From assembly GCF_006716065.1 (NCBI RefSeq), contig NZ_VFOL01000001.1:5456001-5520000 (forward strand): a DNA stretch of 64,000 nucleotides, in the 5' to 3' direction. Source of the DNA: Salinispora arenicola (GTDB lineage Bacteria > Actinomycetota > Actinomycetes > Mycobacteriales > Micromonosporaceae). The translations under genes were made by a program, and so were the position numbers. Positions 6,213-60,445 of the stretch are shown piece after piece. A model generated the notes under the pieces. The model was given only the letters and a program-made list of their open reading frames with translations. It was not told the DNA's origin and searched no databases. Every line of letters begins with the position of its first letter. The stretch's first letter is position 1.

Positions 6213-8279
6213 ATGGTCAACCGGCGACAACTGTTGATGGCAGGCGCCGCCGCCGGGGGGGCGGCCGTCCTGCTGTCTCCGACCGGCTCCAGCGCCGTGT
6301 CGTTGCCACTGGAGCGTCCGCTGTTGAATCCCAACGTCATCGAGAAGTACCGGACGAACCTGTTGATCCCGGAGGTCATGCCGCCCGCCCGCCGGCATGG
6401 ACGGGGCCGCGGCGACGAGTACCTGATCGGGATGCGGCAGTTCTCGCAGCAGGTCCTGCCGCCGGATCTTCCCCGAACCACAGTGTGGGGATTCGGCGCC
6501 GCCACGCGCCGGGGCACGTTCCAGTTCCCGGGGTTCACCATCGAGGCCCGCGTCGACCGCCCCGTGCAGGTGACCTGGATCAACCAACTCGTCGACCGAC
6601 AGGACCGCTTCCTGCCGCCGCTGTTGCCCGTCGACCCGACGCTGCTCTGGGCCAACCCGCCCGGGGGGATCGCCGAGCGCGACTCCACTCCCACCTTCAC
6701 GCGGACCCCCGGCCCGTACCTCGGCCCGGTGCCGGTCGTCGTCCACCTGCACGGGGGACACACCCAGGCGGAGAGCGACGGCTACCCGGAGGCGTGGTAC
6801 CTGCCAGCGGCGAAGAACATCCCGGCCGGCTACGCGACGGTCGGCAGCTTCTACGACCGGTATCGAGCGTCGTTCGCCGAGCAGTACGGGATCCAGTGGC
6901 GGCCCGGCACCGCGACGTATCGCTACGACAACGATCAACGGGCTACTACCTTGTGGTATCACGATCACGCGTTGGGGATGACCCGTCAGGCGATCTATTC
7001 CGGCCTGGCCGGCTTCTACCTGCTTCGTGGCGGGCAATCCGATCTGCCACCCGGTGTCCTACCCGGCCCGGCCCCCGCCCTGGGCGATCCCCCGGGCACC
7101 CGCTACTACGAGATCCCGATCGTCATCCAGGATCGATCTTTCGAGCGGGATGGTTCGTTGTTCTACCCCGACAGCCGGGCCTTCAACGGTACGTGCACCA
7201 ATCCCGCAGATTACATTCCCAACGGGGACGTCCCACCGATCTGGGTACCCGAGTTCTTCGCCGACACCATGGTCGCCAATGGTCGAACCTGGCCACGCCT
7301 CGAGGTCGAGCAGCGACGGTATCGGCTGCGCCTGCTCAACGGCTGCAACACGCGCACCCTGATCCTGAAGATCGCGGCCAATCCCACTGCCGAACGTCCC
7401 GTCGACCCCGCCCTGCCGATCTGGTTGATCGGCACCGATGGCGGTTTTCTTCCCCAACCCGAACCGCTCGACGAAATCACCCTCGGCGGCGCCCAACGCG
7501 CCGACGTCATCATCGACTTCACCGATGTGCCCACCGGTACCAACCTCTATCTGATCAACGAAGGCCCGGACGAGCCCTTCCAAGGCGGTGTGCCGGGGGT
7601 CGACTTCGCACCTGCCGACGTCAACACCACCGGTCAGGTCATGAAGCTGGCCGTCGTTCCCCGCACCGGGCCGGATACGAGCGTCCCACCGGACCAACTC
7701 CGCCTACCCAAGTTCGTTCCCCTCGGCCCGGCGACCAACACCCGTCGTCTTTCGCTCGACGAGCGGAGGTCTACCACGAGTTGCGGCGTCAACGGCATAT
7801 TCCTCGGTATCGTCGACCCGGACGGGACTGCCGTGCCGCTGAATTGGGACGACCCGGTCACCGAGAATGTCGCGCTCAACGCCACCGAGATCTGGGAGCT
7901 CGACAACCGCACGGACCATGCTCACCCGATCCACGTTCACCAGGTCGAATTTGAGATCATCGGCCGAGGTCCACGTGGCAACAAACCACCTACCGCCCAG
8001 CAACTCGGCTACCATGACACCGTCCTCGCGCTGCCCGGCGAGATCACTCGAATCAAATCCTTCTTCGACCTACCAGGCCGCTATATCTGGCACTGTCACA
8101 TCCTGGAGCACGAAGACCACGAGATGATGCGGCCGATCAACATCGGCCCCGCGACGGACCCAACCCACGCCGAGACCACCACCCCGCCAGCCGGCGAGAG
8201 CCGGCAGCCAAGCGAGTCACCCGATCACAAGCACGACCGGCGACAGAGGAAGCCGGCCCAGCACGACGATCGGCGGTGA
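6213..8279 (+). CDS. Multicopper oxidase (CotA/bilirubin oxidase-like), Tat-exported
   Basis: 688 residues. Exported oxidase that removes single electrons from phenolics, bilirubin-type pigments or metal ions and reduces oxygen to water. The N-terminus (VNRRQLLMAGAAAGG) is a twin-arginine signal. All four copper motifs are intact: HLHGGH (178-183), WYHDHALGM (248-256), HPIHVHQ (from 571) and HCHILEHED (from 627, with the type 1 copper Cys at 628). The tail after about 655 is polar and His/Arg-rich. A GGGAGGGG ribosome site precedes the ATG. The gene stands alone, with convergent dapF 22 bases after its stop. A second oxidase-like protein at 54.4 kb lacks these ligands. The physiological substrate is unknown. 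Confidence 0.93.
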   Translation: MVNRRQLLMAGAAAGGAAVLLSPTGSSAVSLPLERPLLNPNVIEKYRTNLLIPEVMPPARRHGRGRGDEYLIGMRQFSQQVLPPDLPRTTVWGFGAATRRGTFQFPGFTIEARVDRPVQVTWINQLVDRQDRFLPPLLPVDPTLLWANPPGGIAERDSTPTFTRTPGPYLGPVPVVVHLHGGHTQAESDGYPEAWYLPAAKNIPAGYATVGSFYDRYRASFAEQYGIQWRPGTATYRYDNDQRATTLWYHDHALGMTRQAIYSGLAGFYLLRGGQSDLPPGVLPGPAPALGDPPGTRYYEIPIVIQDRSFERDGSLFYPDSRAFNGTCTNPADYIPNGDVPPIWVPEFFADTMVANGRTWPRLEVEQRRYRLRLLNGCNTRTLILKIAANPTAERPVDPALPIWLIGTDGGFLPQPEPLDEITLGGAQRADVIIDFTDVPTGTNLYLINEGPDEPFQGGVPGVDFAPADVNTTGQVMKLAVVPRTGPDTSVPPDQLRLPKFVPLGPATNTRRLSLDERRSTTSCGVNGIFLGIVDPDGTAVPLNWDDPVTENVALNATEIWELDNRTDHAHPIHVHQVEFEIIGRGPRGNKPPTAQQLGYHDTVLALPGEITRIKSFFDLPGRYIWHCHILEHEDHEMMRPINIGPATDPTHAETTTPPAGESRQPSESPDHKHDRRQRKPAQHDDRR

Positions 8280-51689: not shown

Positions 51690-52499
51690 GTGCCCGAAGG
51701 CGACACGGTCTGGAACACCGCCCGCGTACTTGAGCAGGCGCTGGCCGGCGACCGGCTGACCGGCAGCGAGTTCCGCGTACCGCGGCTCGCCACGACGAAC
51801 CTCGCCGGCTGGACGGTCCACGAGTCGGCCAGCCGGGGCAAACACCTGCTGCTGCGCCTCGCGTCACCGCGCACCGACCACGGCGACGGCGAGCGCTGGA
51901 CGCTGCACTCGCACCTGCGGATGGACGGCACCTGGCGAACGTATCCGCCCGGACGGCGCTGGTCCGCCCGCCCGGCACACCTGATCCGGGCGGTGCTGCG
52001 CGGCCCCCGGGCGGTGGCCGTCGGGTATCACCTGCACGACCTCGCCCTCGTGCCCACGGCCGAGGAGCAGCGCCTCGTGGGCCATCTCGGCCCGGACCTG
52101 CTCGGCCCGGACTGGGATCCGGTCGAGGCGGTCCGGCGCCTCACCGCCGACCCCGAGGCCACCATCGGCACCGCCCTGCTCGACCAACGTAGCCTCGCCG
52201 GCGTGGGCAACCTCTACAAGTGCGAGGTGCTGTTCCTACGCGGAGTGTCGCCGTGGACGCCGGTACGCGCCGTACCCGACCTGATCGGCGTGGTGACCCT
52301 GGCGCAGCGGCTGCTCGCCGCCAACCGTGGGCACGGGACCCAGAGCAGCACCGGATCCCGACACCGGGGACAGACCACCTACGTGTACGGCCGGTGGGCC
52401 CAGCCCTGCCGCCGCTGCGGCACCGCGATCCGCCGGCAGGAGCAGGATGAACGGGTCACCTACTGGTGCCCGACCTGCCAACCTGAACGTCCCGGCTGA
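51690..52499 (+). CDS. nei2: Endonuclease VIII-family DNA glycosylase (Nei2)
   Basis: 269 residues. Fpg/Nei base-excision enzyme that removes oxidised pyrimidines and cleaves the backbone. Pro2 and Glu3 (PEGDTVW) are the catalytic residues. The H2TH region (LLDQRSLAGVGNLYKCEVLFL) and the C-terminal zinc finger CRRCGTAI...YWCPTCQ are present. GGGGAGG overlaps the region just before GTG 51690. In Mycobacterium lhr and nei are neighbours; here a SAM hydrolase gene is inserted between them. Confidence 0.94.
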   Translation: MPEGDTVWNTARVLEQALAGDRLTGSEFRVPRLATTNLAGWTVHESASRGKHLLLRLASPRTDHGDGERWTLHSHLRMDGTWRTYPPGRRWSARPAHLIRAVLRGPRAVAVGYHLHDLALVPTAEEQRLVGHLGPDLLGPDWDPVEAVRRLTADPEATIGTALLDQRSLAGVGNLYKCEVLFLRGVSPWTPVRAVPDLIGVVTLAQRLLAANRGHGTQSSTGSRHRGQTTYVYGRWAQPCRRCGTAIRRQEQDERVTYWCPTCQPERPG

Positions 52500-52532: not shown

Positions 52533-53312
52533 TCAGTCCCGCAGGTGCAGTCCGAAGCTGGTACGGCCCGCGGGCTCCACCCCCTCCTTCAGCCGCAACG
52601 AGGGGATCTCGTAGTCGCCGGAGTTCTGCTGTCGGAACGCGATCGGCTCGGTCGACTCCAGGGCGAGCAGGCGCTGCGTCCAGGCTTTGGCGATGTCCGG
52701 GTAGTCCTCGTCGGTCAGCCGATCGGCGCCGTACAGCACGAACGGCGGCAGCACCTCCATACCCGGGTAGTAGAGGATGCCGTGCTGGATCGGGAACAGC
52801 AGGTCCTCGATGGGTCCGTTGATCCCGCGATCCGAGTAGTGCGGCTCCGATCCACCGGCAGTCACCGACAGCAGTGCCTTCCTGCCGGCCAGGGTGCCTT
52901 CGCCGAAGCGGTCACCGAACCTGGTGGCGCTGTACTCGCCGACGCCGTACGCGAAGTGGAAACTGAACACCCGGTCCACCCAGCCCTTGAGGATCGCGGG
53001 CATGGTGAACCACCACAGCGGAAACTGAAGGATGACCATGTCGGCCCACCGCAGCTTCTCCTGCTCGGCGAGGACGTCCGGGGTGAGTGTCCCGGCGTCG
53101 AAGGCTCGGCCCGAGTCCAGGGCGACCTTCAGCCGACCGGAGGCGTCGGGGTCGTGGTCCGTGCTGTCCACGACCGCCTTCCAGTTCATCGCGTACAGGT
53201 CGCTGACCCGCACCTCGTGCCCGGCGGTGCGCAGGGTGGAGACGGCGAGGTCCTTCAGCGAGCCGTTGAGCGACTTCGGCTCCGGGTGGGCATAGACGAT
53301 CAGCGTCTTCAT
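52533..53312 (-). CDS. NAD(P)H dehydrogenase (quinone)/flavodoxin-like oxidoreductase
   Basis: 259 residues. Flavodoxin-fold reductase of the NQO1/ModA type that transfers two electrons from NAD(P)H to quinones or related electrophiles. Motifs: LIVYAHPEPKSLNGSLKDLA (phosphate loop), DMVILQFPLWWFTMPAILKGWVDRVF, and KALLSVTAGGSEPHYS. AAGGGAG precedes the ATG at 53312. It is divergent from a regulator gene 135 bases away with a palindrome between, so its expression is probably controlled by that regulator. Confidence 0.9.
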   Translation of the reverse strand: MKTLIVYAHPEPKSLNGSLKDLAVSTLRTAGHEVRVSDLYAMNWKAVVDSTDHDPDASGRLKVALDSGRAFDAGTLTPDVLAEQEKLRWADMVILQFPLWWFTMPAILKGWVDRVFSFHFAYGVGEYSATRFGDRFGEGTLAGRKALLSVTAGGSEPHYSDRGINGPIEDLLFPIQHGILYYPGMEVLPPFVLYGADRLTDEDYPDIAKAWTQRLLALESTEPIAFRQQNSGDYEIPSLRLKEGVEPAGRTSFGLHLRD

Positions 53313-53397
53313 GAGGGCTCCCTTCGGATCGGTGTCTCGATCCTGGGCGCCGGGGCGCCCGACATTCAGGGGCGCCGCTTCCTCGGACGGGATGTCC

Positions 53398-53414
53398 TGG
53401 TACCAGCAGTACCA
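53398..53414. promoter_or_regulatory. TGGTAC-N5-GTACCA operator-like palindrome
   Basis: A perfect 6-base inverted repeat around CAGCA, 34 bases upstream of the regulator ATG and 86 bases upstream of the reductase start. It lies in front of GATACT (53436-53441), a possible -10 of the regulator promoter, so binding could block transcription. Confidence 0.55.
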
Positions 53415-53447
53415 CCCACCCGGCAACGACCCAGCGATACTGGGAGG

Positions 53448-54296
53448 ATGGACAGTCTCGCGGGCTTCCTGCGGACCCGGCGTTCCCGGGTCGACCCGAC
53501 GGCCGTCGGCATCCCCATCGACCGGCACCGCCGGGTCCAGGGGCTGCGCCGCGAGGAGGTCGCGCACCTGTCCGGAGTCAGCGTCGACTACTACGTACGC
53601 CTGGAGCAGGGCCGCGCGACCCAGCCCTCCGACCAGGTCCTCGACGCGCTCGCCCGCGTTCTCGGCCTCGACGAGACCGAAAGCGAGCACCTCCACCGGC
53701 TTGCTCGACAGCGCCGCCACCGGGCGAAGACACCGGGCGGGCGGGTCCGACCCGAGCTGCTCCGCATCCTCGACCTGATGGCCGACGCGCCCGCGCTGAT
53801 CATGAACCATCGGCTGGACGTACTCGCCGGAAACCGCCTCGCCCGGCTCCTCTACGGCCTGCCGATGCCGGGCCTGAACACCGCTCGGCACATCTTCCTC
53901 GAGGAGGACGAGCGCGGCCTGTACGCGGACTGGGAGGCGTGCACCCGCAACGTGGTCGGGCATCTGCGCCTGGCTGCCGGCAAGTACCCCGAGGAGCCCC
54001 GCCTCACCTCGCTCATCGGCGAACTGGCGATGGGTAGCGAGCGTTTCCGCGGCCTCTGGGCCCGCGCGGACGTCCGCGCCCGCACCCACGGACGGCGAAC
54101 GTATCGGCATCCGCTGGTCGGGCTCCTGGAACTGCACCAGGAAAGCCTCATGCCACCGGACGAATCCGGCATGGAACTACTGATCCTGTCCGCGGCGCCC
54201 GGCAGCCCCAGCGAGGATGGGCTACGCCTGCTCGCGGGCCTGGGCACGGACGAAACGGCGGGCCGGCCCAGAAAGGGACGATTGGGCACTTCCTAA
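53448..54296 (+). CDS. XRE/MmyB-type transcriptional regulator
   Basis: 282 residues. N-terminal helix-turn-helix (about 10-75: LRREEVAHLSGVSVDYYVRLEQGRA) and a C-terminal MmyB-like ligand-binding domain (about 100-270: LMADAPALIMNHRLDVLAGNRLARLLY, WEACTRNVVGHLRLAAGKYP). Members often control adjacent oxidoreductases and may sense fatty acids or acyl-CoA. ATG 53448 with GGGAGG two bases before; the frame upstream is noncoding readthrough. Divergent from the reductase gene. Confidence 0.92.
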   Translation: MDSLAGFLRTRRSRVDPTAVGIPIDRHRRVQGLRREEVAHLSGVSVDYYVRLEQGRATQPSDQVLDALARVLGLDETESEHLHRLARQRRHRAKTPGGRVRPELLRILDLMADAPALIMNHRLDVLAGNRLARLLYGLPMPGLNTARHIFLEEDERGLYADWEACTRNVVGHLRLAAGKYPEEPRLTSLIGELAMGSERFRGLWARADVRARTHGRRTYRHPLVGLLELHQESLMPPDESGMELLILSAAPGSPSEDGLRLLAGLGTDETAGRPRKGRLGTS

Positions 54297-54405
54297 CCCA
54301 CCCTCACAGGTCGCATGCTGCAGTTGAGCGCTCACAGACCGTTCGTTTCGCGCGTCCACCGCCACGCCGAGGTGGTCGGTGCGCGCGCCCGACGCCGGGA
54401 GAGCC

Positions 54406-57400
54406 ATGGACCTGTTCCGCAGACTCCGGATCCCCTGGGCCGAGCGACCCGCCACCAACCACATGGATGCCACCGATGACGACAGGCCGCTGGTGCCGGC
54501 GACACGGAGCGCGCAGGACACCGCGACGAGCCCGCCAGCGGAGGCCCCGAACCCGCCACCACCGACACTCCTGGACCCGGTGGCACCACCGACGGCCCTG
54601 GACCCGGCGGCACCACCAACGGTCCTGGACCCGATGGCACCACCGACGGCCCTGGACCCGGCGGCGCTGCCCCGCTGTTTCGGCCCGGTGCCGAACCACG
54701 CGCACAGCCCGCTGCCGGCCCTGAACGCCGACGGCGAGGTGATTCCCGGCACCGGCATCCGAAAGTTCGTCGACCCGCTGCCCACGCTCGACTCGGGCTA
54801 CCACCCAGCCGGCGGCCTGCCGGTGGCGGTCCCGGACACCATCACCTACCCGGGCTGCGACTACTACGAAATCGGTCTCCAGGAGTACGCGCAGCGGCTG
54901 CATCGGGACCTTCCGGCAACCCGGCTGCGCGGGTACCGGCAGCTCAACCTCGGCACCGACCCGACCGGACACAACACGGTCGCACCACCGGAGCACCCGG
55001 TTCACCTCGGCCCGGTGATCGTCGCGCGGCGCGGCCGGCCGGTGCGGGTCAAGTTCATCAACCAGCTTCCCACCGGGCAGGCCGGTGAGCTGTTCCTACC
55101 CGTCGATCTGAGCATCGACGGCGCCGGCCGGGGACCGCTCGACGGACCGGCACCGTACCCGCAGAACCGGGCGGTGCTGCACCTCGCGGGCGCACAGACC
55201 GGTTGGGTCAGCGCCGGAACCCCATGGCAGTGGATCACACCCGCCGCAGAGGTCACCCCGTACCCGACCGGTCCTGGCCTGGCCCACGTGCCGGACATGC
55301 CGCCGCCCGGCATCGGGGCCACCACGCTGTACTACCCGAACGAACAGAGCGGGCGGCTCCTCGCGTTCCACGACAACACCGCCGGACTCGCCCGACTCAC
55401 GATCTACTCTGGTCAGCTCGGCCTTTACCTGCTCACCGATCCCGCCGAAGCTGGCCTGGTCGCCGACGGCGTGCTGCCCGCCGACCAGATCCCCCTGGTC
55501 TTCGAGGACAAGACGTTCGTGCCCGACGACAGCCAACTGGCCGACACCGACCCGACCTGGGACCGGGACCGGTGGGGCGCCCGAGGCAGCCTCTGGCACC
55601 CGCACGTCTACCAACCCCGGCAGAACCCGTACCGAGACGACGGCATCAACCCGACCGGACGCTGGGACTACGGACCGTGGACGCGCACCGCCGAGGAGAT
55701 GGGGGTGAACGGCGCGACCGGGGCGGACGGCACCGGAGCGGGCCCGGTGCCGAACCCACACCACGACCCGGTCGGTGACACGCCGGATGAGCCACCGATG
55801 ACACCAGGCGTACCGCACCCGTCGGCGGTACCCGCCGCATACGGCGATACCGTGCTGGTCAACGGGGTGGCGTACCCGTGGCTGACGGTCGAACCGCGCA
55901 CCTATCGGTTCCGCGTCCTCAACGCCTGCCTGGACCGCAGCCTGAACCTTCAGCTCTATCGGGCGCGCGGCACCGGACCGATGTGGGACCGCAACGGCGA
56001 ACTGGCCGACCCGGACGCCGGCGAGGTTCCGATGGTGGCGGCGACACGGACACCAGACCGACCCGCCCGATGGCCGACAGACGGACGGGAAGGCGGAGTG
56101 CCGGACCCGCTCGCCGCCGGCCCCGACCTGGTGCAGATCGGCAACGAAGGAGGCCTCCTGCCGGCCCCGGCGGTACTCCCCAGCCAACCGGTGACCTACC
56201 GACACGACCGGCGCGACCCCACCGTCCTCAACATCGACCGGCACGCGCTGCTGCTCGCCCCCGGAGAACAGGCCGACGTGCTGGTCGACTTCGCCACCGT
56301 CACCCCCGGCAGCACCGTGCTCCTCTACAACGACGCCCCGGCCCCGCTCCCCGACTTCGACCCCCGGTACGACCACCACACCGAAGCCCCGGACCACACC
56401 GCCGAAGGTGGGACACCACCGAGCCGACCCGGGTACGGGCCGAACACCCGCACCCTGCTGCAGTTCCGGGTGGCCGGCACCCCGGCGCCCCACTACGACC
56501 TGGCCCGGCTCCGGGAGCGGCTACCCCGGGCGTACGCGGCCGGTCAGCTTCCTCCGATCGTGCCGCAACCCGCCTACGACGCGGCGTTCGGCACCCGCAC
56601 CGCCCGCGAGACCACAGTCCCGGTGCACGCCACCACAGTCGGTTTCACCCCGGCCGGGGGTACCGATCCCGTCCTGCTGCCGCTCGCCGTGAAGGCCGTC
56701 CAGCAGGTCTTCGAACCCGCACACGGCCGGCTCGCCGGCCGGCTCGGCGTCGGGCCCCCACCCGGTGGCCCGCTCGCCCCCGCCGTGGTGTCGCTCAACC
56801 CCACCGACCCGGCCACCGAGATGGTGCAGGTCGGTGAGCCGACGGTCCCGATGGGCCCGGCCGTCGACGGCACACAGCTGTGGCGGATCCGTGGCGCCAG
56901 CCGGCAGACCCAGCCGATCCGCCTCGACGGTGTCGACCTGCAACTGATCAACCGGGCCGGGTGGGACGGCACGCTCCGCCCTCCGGACCCGAACGAGGTG
57001 GGCTGGAAACAGGTCATCCGGGTCAACCCGCGCGAGGACGTGGTGGTCGCGCTGCACCCGGTCGCGCCGCCCCTCCCATTCAAGATCGCCGACAGCGTAC
57101 GGCCACTGGATCCGAGCCGGCCGGGCGACGTCCACACCGGAGGATCCTCGCTGACCTGTCGCGCCGCCCCGGCGGTCAACCAGCCCGTCAACCTGGGCTG
57201 GGAATACCGCTGGCACAGCCAGCTCGCCGGATACCGGGACCAGGGCATGTGCCGACCACTGGTGTTGCGGGTCGCCCCACAGGCTCCGACCGGGTTGACC
57301 GCGACCCCGGGCCCCGGCTCGGCCACCGCCCTGCCGGCCATCCTGCTCGCCTGGACCGGCAACGGCAACCCGCCCGCCGCCACCAGCCACCTGCTGCAAC

Positions 57401-58149
57401 GGGCCACCGACCCGACGTTCACCGACGGGCTGACCGCGATCACGGTGGCAGCCAGCGCCACCCACTACACCGACGCGACCGTCACTCCGGGAGTGACCTA
57501 CCACTACCGCATCCGGGCGGAGAACGCGGTCAGCTGCTCGGCATGGTCGAACTGTGCGCCCGCGTCGGTGCGGCTCGCCGCACCGACCAGCCTGGCCGCG
57601 GTGGTGCCGCCGACGGCCCCGCTGCGGGTGGCGCTGCACTGGCGTAACTGTTCCTTCGCCACCGGCGTCGACGTGCAGCGCGCCACCAACCCCACTTTCA
57701 CCAGCGGGCCCGGCACCACGGCCATCAGCGTGGGCGACAGCCACCTCGACCCCGCCGTCACACCGAACACCCGCTACTACTACCGGGTCCGCACCACCTA
57801 CCTAGGGGCGGCGTCACCGTTCTCCACTGTGGCGCAGGTGACCACACCGCCCCGCCCCGGCACACCGGAGGCGGTGACCGTCACCGCGACCGCGTCCGCC
57901 CCGGACACCGCGACCGTCATCCTGGGCTGGGCCGCGAACGCCCCCGCCGGGCCGGGCGGCGGATTCACCGTGCAGCGGGCCGCGGACCCGAACTTCACCC
58001 GCGAGGTCGCCACCTTCACCGTCAACGGGCGGGGGTTCACCAACACCGGCCTGGCCCGCAGGGCCACCTACCACTACCGGATCCGCGCGTTCAACGTCGT
58101 CGGGACGTCCCCCTTCACCAACCCGGTCGCGGTGACGACGCCGGACTGA
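54406..58149 (+). CDS. Multicopper oxidase-like protein lacking copper ligands, with C-terminal FnIII-like repeats
   Basis: 1247 residues. Residues about 115-955 align in order with a CotA-type oxidase, but each copper motif is changed: HLHGGH becomes HLAGAQ (from 259), HDHA becomes FHDNTA (His322), HPIHLH becomes QPIRLD (from 836), and HCHILEHED becomes WHSQLAGYRDQGM (His937; the type 1 Cys is Ser). No Cu site could form normally. Residues about 961-1247 hold three FnIII-like beta repeats with YHYRIRAFN-type strands. The N-terminus has no signal peptide and contains a 9-residue Pro-rich repeat (LDPxAPPTx). GGGAGAG precedes ATG 54406. A catalytically inert structural or binding protein is the best guess. 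Confidence 0.8.
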   Translation: MDLFRRLRIPWAERPATNHMDATDDDRPLVPATRSAQDTATSPPAEAPNPPPPTLLDPVAPPTALDPAAPPTVLDPMAPPTALDPAALPRCFGPVPNHAHSPLPALNADGEVIPGTGIRKFVDPLPTLDSGYHPAGGLPVAVPDTITYPGCDYYEIGLQEYAQRLHRDLPATRLRGYRQLNLGTDPTGHNTVAPPEHPVHLGPVIVARRGRPVRVKFINQLPTGQAGELFLPVDLSIDGAGRGPLDGPAPYPQNRAVLHLAGAQTGWVSAGTPWQWITPAAEVTPYPTGPGLAHVPDMPPPGIGATTLYYPNEQSGRLLAFHDNTAGLARLTIYSGQLGLYLLTDPAEAGLVADGVLPADQIPLVFEDKTFVPDDSQLADTDPTWDRDRWGARGSLWHPHVYQPRQNPYRDDGINPTGRWDYGPWTRTAEEMGVNGATGADGTGAGPVPNPHHDPVGDTPDEPPMTPGVPHPSAVPAAYGDTVLVNGVAYPWLTVEPRTYRFRVLNACLDRSLNLQLYRARGTGPMWDRNGELADPDAGEVPMVAATRTPDRPARWPTDGREGGVPDPLAAGPDLVQIGNEGGLLPAPAVLPSQPVTYRHDRRDPTVLNIDRHALLLAPGEQADVLVDFATVTPGSTVLLYNDAPAPLPDFDPRYDHHTEAPDHTAEGGTPPSRPGYGPNTRTLLQFRVAGTPAPHYDLARLRERLPRAYAAGQLPPIVPQPAYDAAFGTRTARETTVPVHATTVGFTPAGGTDPVLLPLAVKAVQQVFEPAHGRLAGRLGVGPPPGGPLAPAVVSLNPTDPATEMVQVGEPTVPMGPAVDGTQLWRIRGASRQTQPIRLDGVDLQLINRAGWDGTLRPPDPNEVGWKQVIRVNPREDVVVALHPVAPPLPFKIADSVRPLDPSRPGDVHTGGSSLTCRAAPAVNQPVNLGWEYRWHSQLAGYRDQGMCRPLVLRVAPQAPTGLTATPGPGSATALPAILLAWTGNGNPPAATSHLLQRATDPTFTDGLTAITVAASATHYTDATVTPGVTYHYRIRAENAVSCSAWSNCAPASVRLAAPTSLAAVVPPTAPLRVALHWRNCSFATGVDVQRATNPTFTSGPGTTAISVGDSHLDPAVTPNTRYYYRVRTTYLGAASPFSTVAQVTTPPRPGTPEAVTVTATASAPDTATVILGWAANAPAGPGGGFTVQRAADPNFTREVATFTVNGRGFTNTGLARRATYHYRIRAFNVVGTSPFTNPVAVTTPD
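54571..54666 (+). repeat. 27-base tandem repeats in the oxidase-like gene
   Basis: Three full copies and a partial copy of 27 bases encode LDPxAPPTx. They make a Pro-rich linker in the N-terminal tail (residues about 56-87). Confidence 0.85.
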
Positions 58150-58181: not shown

Positions 58182-58961
58182 TCAGGAGGTGCGGACGGTG
58201 GGGTCGGTGGCGCGCAGCTCAGCCAACGCCGACGCCACTCCGTGCAACAGGTCGGTCGCCTCGGTGAGCCGGGCCGCCGCCGGATGCTCGACATCGGGCC
58301 GGGCGTTCTCGGCCACATAACCGGCGGCGGCCACCACCAGCCGCTCGTACGCCGCGACACCACTGTCAAGCTGGCCGGAGAGGGCCACCCGCGCCTCCTG
58401 AAGCGGACGGCGGGTCTCGGGCGGCGCGAGCCGAATCGCCCGTTCGACGTCGGCGACCCGGGCGGCGAGGTCTCGCAACGAGCGGTCCGCCGCGGTGGCC
58501 TCGGCGACCGCGGGCTCCGCCACCCCGGTCAGCCGGCCCCGCAGGCCCGTGAACGTCGCCCCAGCCCGATCCAGCCGGGCCCACGGCTCGGCGGCGCTGG
58601 TGCCGCGAAGCGCGACCCGGGACCGAATCCGTCGTACCTCCGCGAGCACGCCAGGGCCGATCGGAAGGCGCTCCACCGCCGCGACCAGCCGGGCCCGCGA
58701 ATGGGCCGCCGCCTGCGCCGGGTCCACCGGAGGCGGCGCCGGCTGGGCGGCCAGCGCCCGCAGGTCGACCCAGCGCCAGGTGGCGAGCACGATCGCCCCG
58801 CCCGCACCGGCGGCCCACGCCGCGTCCGCCAGCCCCAGACCGGCGTACGGCGTCAGCACCGCCGCCGCGCCACCGAGCCCACCGGCGGTGACGCTCCACC
58901 GGCGGGCAGACCGCCGCAGCCGGCTCAGCCGCCGAAAGTATCGCGTTCGCTCGTCCGCCAC
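58182..58961 (-). CDS. pspM: PspM-like PspA-associated membrane protein
   Basis: 259 residues. Two transmembrane segments (about 26-43 and 48-66) near the N-terminus, then a long helical cytoplasmic part. Position right after pspA and this layout match actinobacterial PspM, which tethers the stress protein to the membrane. GGGGAGG lies five bases before GTG 58961. The gene is 23 bases after pspA and its own stop is convergent with the oxidase-like gene. The sequence is not strongly conserved in this family, so the call leans on context. Confidence 0.75.
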   Translation of the reverse strand: MADERTRYFRRLSRLRRSARRWSVTAGGLGGAAAVLTPYAGLGLADAAWAAGAGGAIVLATWRWVDLRALAAQPAPPPVDPAQAAAHSRARLVAAVERLPIGPGVLAEVRRIRSRVALRGTSAAEPWARLDRAGATFTGLRGRLTGVAEPAVAEATAADRSLRDLAARVADVERAIRLAPPETRRPLQEARVALSGQLDSGVAAYERLVVAAAGYVAENARPDVEHPAAARLTEATDLLHGVASALAELRATDPTVRTS

Positions 58962-58984
58962 GTCGCCTCCCCAACCCCGCCCGC

Positions 58985-59860
58985 TCAACCGGCGGCGGCA
59001 CTGCCCCCGGTGCCGCGCTCCCGGCTCAGACTGGACCGGATCTCGTCGAGCCGGGCCACGGCCGCCGGGTCGGTGACCGGGACGTCCTGCTGCTCGGGCT
59101 GCGCCACGGCCGGCCGCTGGGCGGCGCCGCCGAGCTGTTCACCGGTCATGCCGGCGCGGATCTGGTCGAGCCGGGCGGAGCCGGCCGCGTCGAGGGCCGC
59201 CTGCTGGATGTCCAGCATCTGCCCCTCGACCGAGTTGCTGGCGAGTTCGGCCCGGCCCATCGCGTTGGCGTACCGGCGCTCGATTCGCTCGCGCACCTCG
59301 TCCAGGGTGGGGGTGGTGCCCGGCGCAGTGATCGCCGACATCGACTCCAGCGAGGCGGCGACGGACTCCTGCATCTTGGCCTGCTCCAGCTGGCTGAGCA
59401 GCTTCGCCCGTTCGGCGAGCTTCTGCTGGAGGATCATCGAGTTGTTCTCGACCGCCTTACGCGCCTGCGCCGCCGCGCCGAGTGCCTGGTCGTGCAGGGT
59501 CTTCAGGTCCTCGGTGGCCTGCTCGGCGGAGACCAACTGGGTGGCGAGGGCCTGGGCGGACTGCTCGTAGCGGGTGGCCTCGGCCTCGCTGCCCTTGGCC
59601 CGGGACTGGTCGGCCAGCACCAGGGCTTGGCGCGCGTTGCCCTGCAGCCGTTCGACCTCGGACATCTGCCGGGACAGCTTCATCTCCAGCTGCCGCTGGT
59701 TGCCGATCACCGCTGCGGCCTGCTGGACGAGCGTCTGGTGCTGGCGCTGCGCCTCCTCGATGGCCTGCTGGACCTGCACCTTCGGATCTGCGCGCTCGTC
59801 GAGCTTGGTGCCGAAGAGCGCCATCAGATATTTCCAACCCTTGACGAACGGGTTCGCCAT
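58985..59860 (-). CDS. pspA: Phage shock protein A (PspA/IM30/Vipp1 family)
   Basis: 291 residues. Peripheral membrane protein that oligomerises on damaged membranes and protects the proton gradient. Start [26 protein letters not shown] gives the amphipathic helix, then a long coiled coil (about 25-220: [27 protein letters not shown]). The C-terminal tail (230-291) is Pro/Gln-rich with a repeat of RLDQIR and RLDEIRSSL. It follows clgR by 132 bases and precedes pspM, the mycobacterial clgR-pspA-pspM order. An inverted repeat lies in the gap upstream. Confidence 0.95.
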
Positions 59861-59992: not shown

Positions 59993-60445
59993 TCAGGCGG
60001 CGCAGACCACGTCGCGGTCCGTCGCCCGCACCCGGGCACGCAGGGTGGCCTTGAGCGCCGAATCCTGGCGAACCTGCACCGACACCGAGCCGTCCGAGGA
60101 GACCTGGCGGACCGCCCGGCCCGCCGCTTTGCCGTGGGCGGACGCCGGGACCGAGGCGGGCTGTTGTCCGGCCGGCTCGTCCTGGACCGGCACCAGCACG
60201 CCCGGCATCTGCTCGGCGAGCGCCACAGTGTCGCTCACCTCCCGCAGCAGCTCGGACAGGCGGGCGCCGAGCGCGTCACAGATCGCCGCCAGCAGCTCGC
60301 TCGACGGCTCCTTGTGCCCACGCTCGATCTCAGAGAGGTAACCGAGACTGACATTGGCGGCGGAGGAGACCTCGCGCAGGGTGCGGTGCTGCCCCTGCCG
60401 GCGTGTCCGCAGCGCGTCACCGATCACCCGGCGTAGCAGGACCAT
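59993..60445 (-). CDS. clgR: ClgR-type XRE regulator
   Basis: 150 residues. Helix-turn-helix (about 8-62: [30 protein letters not shown]) matches actinobacterial ClgR, which activates clp protease, pspA and some recA promoters. The C-terminal tail is short and ends DRDVVCAA; the terminal small residues would suit Clp degradation, as known for ClgR. GGGGAGG precedes ATG 60445, whereas the longer open frame has no support. Followed by pspA and pspM. Confidence 0.92.

What the first reader, a model, noticed from the sequence alone, without database searches (positions are those of the whole stretch)
54406..58149. Multicopper oxidase-like protein with all copper sites eroded, fused to FnIII-like repeats
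Seen: the oxidase scaffold is retained from about residue 115 to 955, but the four copper motifs read HLAGAQ, FHDNTA, QPIRLD and WHSQLAGYRDQGM, and the type 1 Cys is Ser. Known: copper ligands are essential for the family. Inferred: the reading frame is intact over 3.7 kb with normal codon use, so the protein is kept for another role, for example binding, with three FnIII-like repeats as a surface. The intact paralogue at 6.2 kb makes a good comparison. It also lacks a signal peptide.
Basis: partly seen in the sequence, partly recalled or inferred. Interest (0 to 1): 0.75.

Follow-up and report, generated by a model that had tools for sequence, protein, structure and literature searches.

The report
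Copper-less multicopper oxidase, conserved across genus
A large bacterial protein descended from a copper enzyme has lost most of the residues that held its copper, yet every genome searched in its genus still carries it, and related lineages lost the copper residues separately, so the protein appears to have been reused for a non-enzymatic job that is still unknown.

Summary
The ORF at 54406-58149 (1247 aa) aligns over residues 88-962 with the three-domain CotA/PhsA type of multicopper oxidase (MCO) and ends in three FnIII repeats. It keeps 4 of 12 canonical copper positions (H259, H322, H937, M948); the type 1 Cys is Ser938.

It is not a dying gene. All 61 genomes searched in its GTDB genus (window genome included) carry it, 57 as one near full-length open frame. 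dN/dS in the MCO part is 0.18-0.30 over 15 pairs, similar to some neighbouring genes.

The gene sits between nei and pspM-pspA-clgR. Of 80 named loci, 77 have at least one of nei, pspM or pspA, and all 77 lack at least one ligand; the other 3 are second copies elsewhere and keep all 12. Twelve loci of other genera show nei beside pspM without the gene. So one insertion was probably followed by parallel ligand loss in at least three lineages, one of which (mostly Plantactinospora) lost trinuclear ligands while mostly keeping the type 1 Cys.

Best reading: a copper-free pseudo-oxidase kept as a binding or scaffold protein, like SufI/FtsP and insect MCORP but a separate family. The missing signal peptide predates ligand loss. 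The role itself is inferred, not shown.

The parts
54406..58149 (+). Copper-less FnIII multicopper-oxidase-like gene (P0001, 1247 aa)
   Evidence: Open frame; full-length homologues; GGGAGAG 54397-54403 before ATG 54406
54406..54441 (+). N-terminal basic/hydrophobic motif MDLFRRLRIPWA, shared by the eroded family
   Evidence: F[RK][RKI] in the first 12 residues of 99 of 117 rows with lost ligands, 0 of 32 rows with 12/12 ligands
54667..57291 (+). Multicopper-oxidase region, residues 88-962
55180..55197 (+). Former copper motif 1 HLAGAQ (H259 kept, second His now Ala261)
   Evidence: CotA HLHG
55366..55383 (+). Former copper motif 2 FHDNTA (H322 kept, second His now Asn324; Asn in 145 of 147 eroded rows)
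56911..56928 (+). Former copper motif 3 QPIRLD (all three His lost: Q836, R839, D841)
57211..57249 (+). Former copper motif 4 WHSQLAGYRDQGM (H937 and M948 kept; type 1 Cys is Ser938, H939 is Gln, H943 is Tyr)
57280..57564 (+). FnIII repeat 1
   Evidence: Internal alignment
57565..57846 (+). FnIII repeat 2
   Evidence: Internal alignment; related Ig-like Pfam models match its end below cut-off
57847..58146 (+). FnIII repeat 3
   Evidence: Pfam fn3 31.1 bits, cut-off 25
54268..54345 (+). Conserved non-coding block upstream of the gene, promoter/operator candidate
   Evidence: Alignment of 77 upstream regions (window and 76 loci) and of 18; first half found only here in the genome at up to 3 mismatches
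51690..52499 (+). nei/fpg-type DNA glycosylase, conserved upstream neighbour
   Evidence: Pfam; found in 74 of 80 loci
58182..58988 (-). pspM (Rv2743c family), convergent downstream neighbour
   Evidence: Pfam PF25587; found in 69 of 80 loci
58985..59860 (-). pspA
   Evidence: Pfam PF04012; found in 62 of 80 loci
59993..60445 (-). clgR-like HTH regulator
   Evidence: Pfam HTH_3; the name clgR is inferred from context; found in 62 of 80 loci
6213..8279 (+). Distant intact MCO paralogue with Tat-like N-terminus (12 of 12 ligands)
   Evidence: (TAT model 12.4 bits, under its cut-off 16.7)

Best explanation
A three-domain CotA-type multicopper oxidase without signal peptide, fused to three FnIII repeats, came to lie between nei and pspM, probably by one insertion, in an ancestor of Micromonospora (with Salinispora), Plantactinospora and relatives. 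There it gained a short basic N-terminal motif (FRRLR-like) and took on a role that does not need copper. Copper ligands then fell away separately in at least three lineages while fold, FnIII tail and genomic place were kept.

In the window's organism the protein cannot form a normal type 1 site or trinuclear site, so it is very unlikely to be an oxidase. It most likely works as a binding or scaffold protein made in the cytoplasm, with the cupredoxin body and FnIII repeats as interaction surfaces and the N-terminal motif as an anchor or targeting tag.

Shown: ligand loss, conservation, genomic place, loci of other genera without the gene, different losses in different lineages, N-terminal motif. 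Inferred: a single insertion, the order of recruitment and loss, no activity, scaffold role, envelope or spore placement, function of the motif.
For: 4 of 12 ligands kept. 61 of 61 genus genomes searched carry it, 57 as one near full-length open frame. dN/dS of the MCO part 0.177-0.303 in 15 eroded pairs. In 147 eroded rows the ligand columns have mean entropy 1.26 against 0.67 for all columns, while 272 other columns invariant in intact relatives have 0.29; 0 of 100,000 draws of 12 such columns reach 1.26. Eight of 12 ligand columns, but 38 of those 272, are replaced in most eroded rows. All 77 loci with a nei, pspM or pspA neighbour lack at least one ligand; all 3 without are 12 of 12. Twelve of 30 pspM loci, from 8 other genera, show nei beside pspM without the gene. 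The eroded rows put in the tree form one clade (97/96) with three separately eroding lineages (same pattern). Precedent: SufI/FtsP keeps 2 of 12, binds no metal in its crystal, scaffold role favoured by its authors (passages of PMC2661564).
Against: No direct evidence of any role. Selection is weaker than on pspA (0.055-0.158) and on the radical-SAM neighbour (0.032-0.212). H259 and H322 are kept in 137 and 139 of 147 rows, so a residual metal site is not excluded. The structure model is poor (mean pLDDT 49.7), so the pocket was not seen. In 12 of 80 loci a stop lies 2-31 codons before the end of the matched stretch, taken as a shorter C-terminus and not checked. P0103 keeps the type 1 Cys while losing 8 other ligands. 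The proposed R839-D841 replacement pair is not supported when relatedness is counted. Absence in other genera could also be repeated loss instead of a single gain.
Confidence: 0.72

Rival explanations
1. A decaying pseudogene that happens still to be open.
For: Most copper ligands are gone; one genome of the genus, G014, has it in several frames, and G005, G016, G029 hold it in pieces; 12 of 80 loci have a stop 2-31 codons before the end of the match.
Against: 57 of 61 genomes hold a near full-length open frame; MCO dN/dS 0.18-0.30 in 15 pairs; conserved upstream block and ribosome-site-like sequence; most of 272 other invariant columns stay conserved.
Confidence: 0.03
2. A metalloprotein of another kind: a residual mononuclear site (type 2-like His pair plus H322) or a new metal site makes it an enzyme or metal sensor.
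For: H259 and H322 are nearly always kept and M948 in 132 of 147 rows; H398, H453, H471, H658 are newly conserved in the eroded clade; 67 of 147 eroded rows keep both type 2 His, 259 and 839. MCORP keeps two type 2 His and its recombinant form held about one copper per 17 molecules (passages of PMC4203857).
Against: The window's protein lost H839; position 839 is H, R, Q or C in the clade. The new His lie far apart in sequence and no confident model shows whether they meet.
Confidence: 0.15
3. A CotA-like spore or cell-envelope structural protein specifically: the fold was kept as a building block of the spore wall.
For: Closest solved relative by sequence is spore coat protein CotA, which I recall also lacks a signal peptide; the carriers are spore formers (recalled); no signal-like stretch in 117 of 117 rows with lost ligands.
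Against: No sporulation signal was identified upstream; the conserved block matches no Rfam family and its first half has no second site in the genome. 58 of 71 family genomes, also mostly spore formers (recalled), lack a match at E 1e-60.
Confidence: 0.25
4. A partner of the neighbouring ClgR-PspA-PspM envelope-stress system.
For: It lies between nei and pspM or pspA in 57 of 57 loci with enough flank that carry an eroded copy.
Against: The gene is convergent with pspM, not in its operon; pspM is found in 60 of 71 family genomes, most without the gene; the nei-pspM junction exists without it, so the place looks inherited. In the 2024 PSP survey the words copper, fibronectin and Micromonospora do not occur in the main text.
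Confidence: 0.08

Closest known systems
CotA laccase / spore coat protein A (Bacillus; PDB 1gsk)
   Same: Three-domain MCO fold, best sequence match in the PDB, no signal peptide (recalled for CotA)
   Different: CotA keeps all copper ligands and is an oxidase (recalled; motifs seen); no FnIII tail (513-residue chain)
SufI / FtsP of E. coli (PDB 2uxt)
   Same: MCO fold with nearly all copper ligands lost (2 of 12 kept, passages of PMC2661564); listed in the fold matches
   Different: SufI is a periplasmic Tat substrate at the septal ring (abstract, passages); score for its NCBIfam model 30.5 against cut-off 581; no FnIII tail
Insect MCORP and plant SKU5
   Same: Conserved MCO relatives lacking many copper ligands; MCORP has no detected oxidase activity and is essential (abstract and passages of PMC4203857)
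   Different: Eukaryotic, secreted (recalled), keep both type 2 His; separate origins (inferred)
Intact FnIII-MCO second copy of some Micromonospora (L084, L087, L088)
   Same: Same architecture, 53-54% identity, no signal-like stretch in the P rows of this clade
   Different: 12 of 12 ligands, different genomic place, no FRRLR-type N-terminus

Membership tests
Multicopper oxidase (CotA/PhsA type), as fold family | Three-cupredoxin-domain sequence and fold | tested here: met
Multicopper oxidase, as enzyme | 10 His, 1 Cys and axial Met binding four coppers | tested here: not met
   4 of 12 positions kept, Cys is Ser
Multicopper oxidase, as enzyme | Copper content and oxidase activity | not testable with these tools
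   Needs purified protein
SufI/FtsP | MCO fold with copper ligands lost | tested here: met
SufI/FtsP | FtsP sequence family (NCBIfam PRK10883) | tested here: not met
   30.5 bits against cut-off 581
SufI/FtsP | Tat signal, periplasmic | tested here: not met
   No hydrophobic stretch in the first 60 residues
O-aminophenol oxidase PhsA | NCBIfam model NF045554 at cut-off | tested here: not met
   60.7 bits against 950
Fibronectin type III protein | fn3 domain above Pfam cut-off | tested here: met
   31.1 bits against 25 for the third repeat
Spore coat protein (CotA role) | Located in the spore coat | not testable with these tools
   Needs spore proteomics
Copper-less MCO-like proteins (SufI, MCORP, SKU5), as a kind | Conserved orthologue set under selection with copper ligands lost | tested here: met

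The most novel reading that the evidence does not exclude
A multicopper oxidase was recruited to a new, copper-independent core function before it lost copper, and at least three descendant lineages shed their copper sites in parallel and by different routes. The branch that is mostly Plantactinospora is a living intermediate: trinuclear ligands lost, type 1 Cys kept in 8 of the 10 rows in the tree and the whole type 1 set in 5 of 10. The present copper-less protein is a genus-wide, perhaps essential, structural protein of an unknown system marked by its FRRLR-type N-terminus.
Probability: 0.5. Interest if true: 0.7.

Novelty: new variant of a known kind. Interest (0 to 1): 0.58.

Why it matters
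The copper-free MCO-fold proteins I know of (SufI, MCORP, SKU5) are end products. This family shows the path in living species: 12/12, 11/12, 9-10/12 with the type 1 Cys and Met kept, down to 2-5/12, with a marked genomic place and repeated parallel loss. That makes the order of events in turning an enzyme into a non-enzyme directly testable. It is also a practical warning: public records call several of these proteins 'laccase' or 'multicopper oxidase' although they lack most copper ligands (for example P0043 and P0059, with 4 and 5 of 12).

Tried and rejected
A job on the intact relative (A3) and one on a deeper alignment (A5) were never accepted because the machine was busy. Foldseek's own listing was not obtained; one search is the VIA-align second look.

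Salt bridge R839-D841 as a filler of the empty site: frequent (49 of 147 rows), but on independent branches it goes the same way in 1.2 and the other way in 1.1 of 6 pairs, so rejected as evidence. H937 with Gln or His at 939 goes the same way in 2.6 and never the other way of 5 pairs (median p 0.25): too few to use.

Regulon of the upstream block: the palindromic half gave only chance-level other sites in the genome (14 forward and 3 reverse including its own, against control 9 and 4), the other half only its own site; no Rfam match. No sigma-factor assignment was possible.

Functional tie to Psp: the nei-pspM junctions without the gene suggest the place is older than the gene.

Irreversible-loss counts are inflated where a single row has the ligand back (P0077; probably L089 too), so only the type 1 Cys is used (5 losses on the full tree, 4 after collapsing weak forks), as a rough guide.

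Rows dropped: P0150 (8 of 12, last motif unlike its relatives) was in neither tree; trees used 61 and 34 chosen rows of 149 family P rows plus loci. In the dN/dS work, one search stopped at the pair L026/L044 (no synonymous change in a piece); that pair, L042/L025 and the N-terminal piece were not carried into, which uses 17 pairs that partly share sequences.

Search for prior description: in the held open-access library listed no paper on this family; that is not proof that none exists.
Full report
OBSERVATION. The open frame 54406-58149 encodes 1247 residues without an internal stop. Of the 12 canonical positions, H259, H322, H937 and M948 are kept; the others read A261, N324, Q836, R839, D841, S938, Q939 and Y943. 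So the type 1 site has lost its Cys and both His, and the trinuclear centre keeps 3 of 8 His (assignment of positions to sites follows CotA, recalled). Pfam sees fn3 above cut-off and MCO domains only below cut-off (13.9 and 12.7 bits against 20.4 and 21).

FAMILY. A protein search scored 8000 candidates and found 969 relatives at E up to 0.001; the 120 best are listed. Where a listed hit carries an organism name it is Micromonospora, Salinispora, Verrucosispora or Plantactinospora. The closest named loci to the window are Salinispora species at 79-83% (one Micromonospora, L082, also 79%), so the window is probably a Salinispora; this is inference. Within the GTDB genus of the window, 61 of 61 genomes (60 sampled plus the window's own) have the gene: 57 as one open frame covering at least 1094 query residues, 4 in pieces (G005, G014, G016, G029). 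Only G035 and G050 show a second copy, at about 55%. In the wider family, 13 of 71 genomes match an intact FnIII-MCO query at E up to 1e-60, in 7 of 44 genera, two of them (G061, G079) only in part.

LIGANDS ACROSS THE FAMILY. Among 121 rows (P0001 and 120 hits) the type 1 Cys is kept in 14 and the second His of HDH in 11; six rows keep all 12. A second search with an intact member (6325 relatives of 8000 scored, 120 listed) added 28 sequences, 26 of them with 12 of 12. In the eroded genus clade (147 distinct rows) ligand columns have mean entropy 1.26 bits against 0.67 for all MCO columns; in 34 intact rows the same columns have 0.00, as the rows were chosen by them. As a control, 272 other columns invariant in the intact rows have a mean entropy of 0.29 in the eroded clade; 24 of the 272 reach 1.26 singly, but no draw of 12 did in 100,000. 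Against random MCO columns, 687 of 100,000 draws reached it. Eight of 12 ligand columns, and 38 of the 272, are replaced in most eroded rows. The pocket is therefore released from constraint more than the scaffold. Not all ligand columns drift: N324 is fixed (145 of 147), Ser or Thr replaces the Cys (145 of 147), and H259 and H322 stay in 137 and 139 of 147.

SELECTION. Counting (NG86-type) dN/dS of the MCO part is 0.177-0.303 in 15 eroded pairs, 0.202 in a Plantactinospora pair and 0.379 in an intact second-copy pair. FnIII values for the eroded pairs are 0.113-0.355. Neighbour controls: pspA 0.055-0.158, pspM 0.102-0.305, nei 0.139-0.373, SAM hydroxide adenosyltransferase 0.170-0.534, radical-SAM gene 0.032-0.212. 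The protein is constrained, but less than pspA. The proline-rich N-terminal stretch is hardly constrained: 0.11-1.47 in 7 pairs on 45-74 codons (which then stopped). In 12 of 80 loci a stop lies 2-31 codons before the end of the matched stretch; I took this as a shorter C-terminus without checking.

PLACE IN THE GENOME. Of 80 named loci (the best 80 of 442 confirmed stretches), 60 have at least 2.6 kb upstream and 2 kb downstream. In 57 of these nei lies upstream and pspM or pspA downstream; the 3 others (L084, L087, L088) have none of these genes and are the ones with 12 of 12 ligands. Overall, 77 loci with at least one such neighbour score 2-11 of 12, and the 3 without score 12. Gaps count as losses there, so L079 and L083, cut by contig ends, score too low, but both lack ligands in the part they hold. 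In other genera of the family, 12 of the 30 pspM loci fetched (L127, L132, L133, L135, L137-L140, L142-L145; 8 genera) show nei 2-503 bases from pspM with no oxidase gene between; of the other 18, 11 carry the gene and 7 show neither it nor nei. The simplest reading is a single insertion into an old nei-pspM junction; repeated loss elsewhere is not excluded.

ORDER OF EVENTS. Trees made without the ligand columns (61 rows; 34 rows with a mixture model) place intact sequences at the base, then the intact second-copy clade, then one clade (97/96) with all eroded rows used. Inside it three lineages lose ligands by different routes. One (P0097, P0098, P0100, L095) loses H937 (to Q), C938 (to G) and M948 (to L) but keeps both His of HDH and H939. 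A second, mostly Plantactinospora, has 10 rows: all 10 lack H939, 9 lack H324, 8 keep the type 1 Cys and 5 keep the whole type 1 set; L089 is 11 of 12 and may be a reversal. (Two Plantactinospora sequences fall elsewhere: P0112 in the intact second-copy clade, P0121 with 2 of 12 on a long branch.) The third leads to Micromonospora and Salinispora. Six loci from three other unnamed genera (L095-L100) show 7-10 of 12 with the same patterns, with pspM beside them in 6 of 6 and nei in 4 of 6. No ligand is lost throughout all three lineages, so their ancestor probably still had all 12; the split of the first and third lineage has only 85/87 support. Loss of a signal peptide came earlier: by a rule-of-thumb hydrophobicity test 9 of 32 intact rows have a signal-like stretch in the first 60 residues, 0 of 117 rows with lost ligands do, and the intact second copies do not. 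An F[RK][RKI] motif in the first 12 residues is present in 99 of 117 rows with lost ligands and 0 of 32 intact ones.

WHAT IT PROBABLY DOES. Copper is required for oxidase activity in this superfamily (abstract of PMC4203857), so it is very unlikely to be an MCO enzyme. SufI/FtsP, with 2 of 12 ligands, shows no metal in its crystal, and its authors favour a scaffold role in cell division (passages of PMC2661564). MCORP has no detected oxidase activity and is essential in insects (abstract and passages of PMC4203857). By analogy I commit to a copper-free binding or scaffold protein (0.72 for the whole statement; a spore or envelope place specifically about 0.25). The psp neighbours are more likely inherited surroundings than partners.

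LITERATURE. Searches for MCO with FnIII and Micromonospora (one unrelated paper), pseudoenzyme MCO (45 papers, 20 listed), Salinispora proteomics with FnIII (none), inactive MCO with copper-binding residues (none) and Micromonospora core genome with MCO (one unrelated paper) listed no paper on this family in the held library; only listings and abstract starts were seen for these. Passages only were read of PMC2661564, PMC4203857 and PMC11237479.

Noticed in passing
52533-54296: A Flavodoxin_2-family reductase gene (minus strand) and an MmyB/MLTR-type regulator gene (plus strand; Pfam) lie between nei and the oxidase gene; among 80 loci this pair was found only in 4 of the 5 Salinispora loci (L011, L012, L013, L072, not L014). 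The regulator's stop codon falls inside the conserved upstream block.
   Followed up: partly
54268-54345: A strongly conserved non-coding block with a TGAGCGCTCA palindrome about 60-140 bases before the start codon, its first half without a second site in the genome, and without an Rfam match.
   Followed up: partly
58182-58988: The Rv2743c-family gene (pspM) matches in 60 of 71 Micromonosporaceae genomes at E up to 1e-10, although a 2024 survey describes PspM as restricted to mycobacteria and corynebacteria (passage of PMC11237479).
   Followed up: no
L084, L087, L088: The intact FnIII-MCO second copies share their own surroundings (an EamA-like transporter upstream in all three and a subtilisin-like protease in two, named by eye from sequence), so they seem to form a separate conserved locus.
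   Followed up: partly
   Followed up: no
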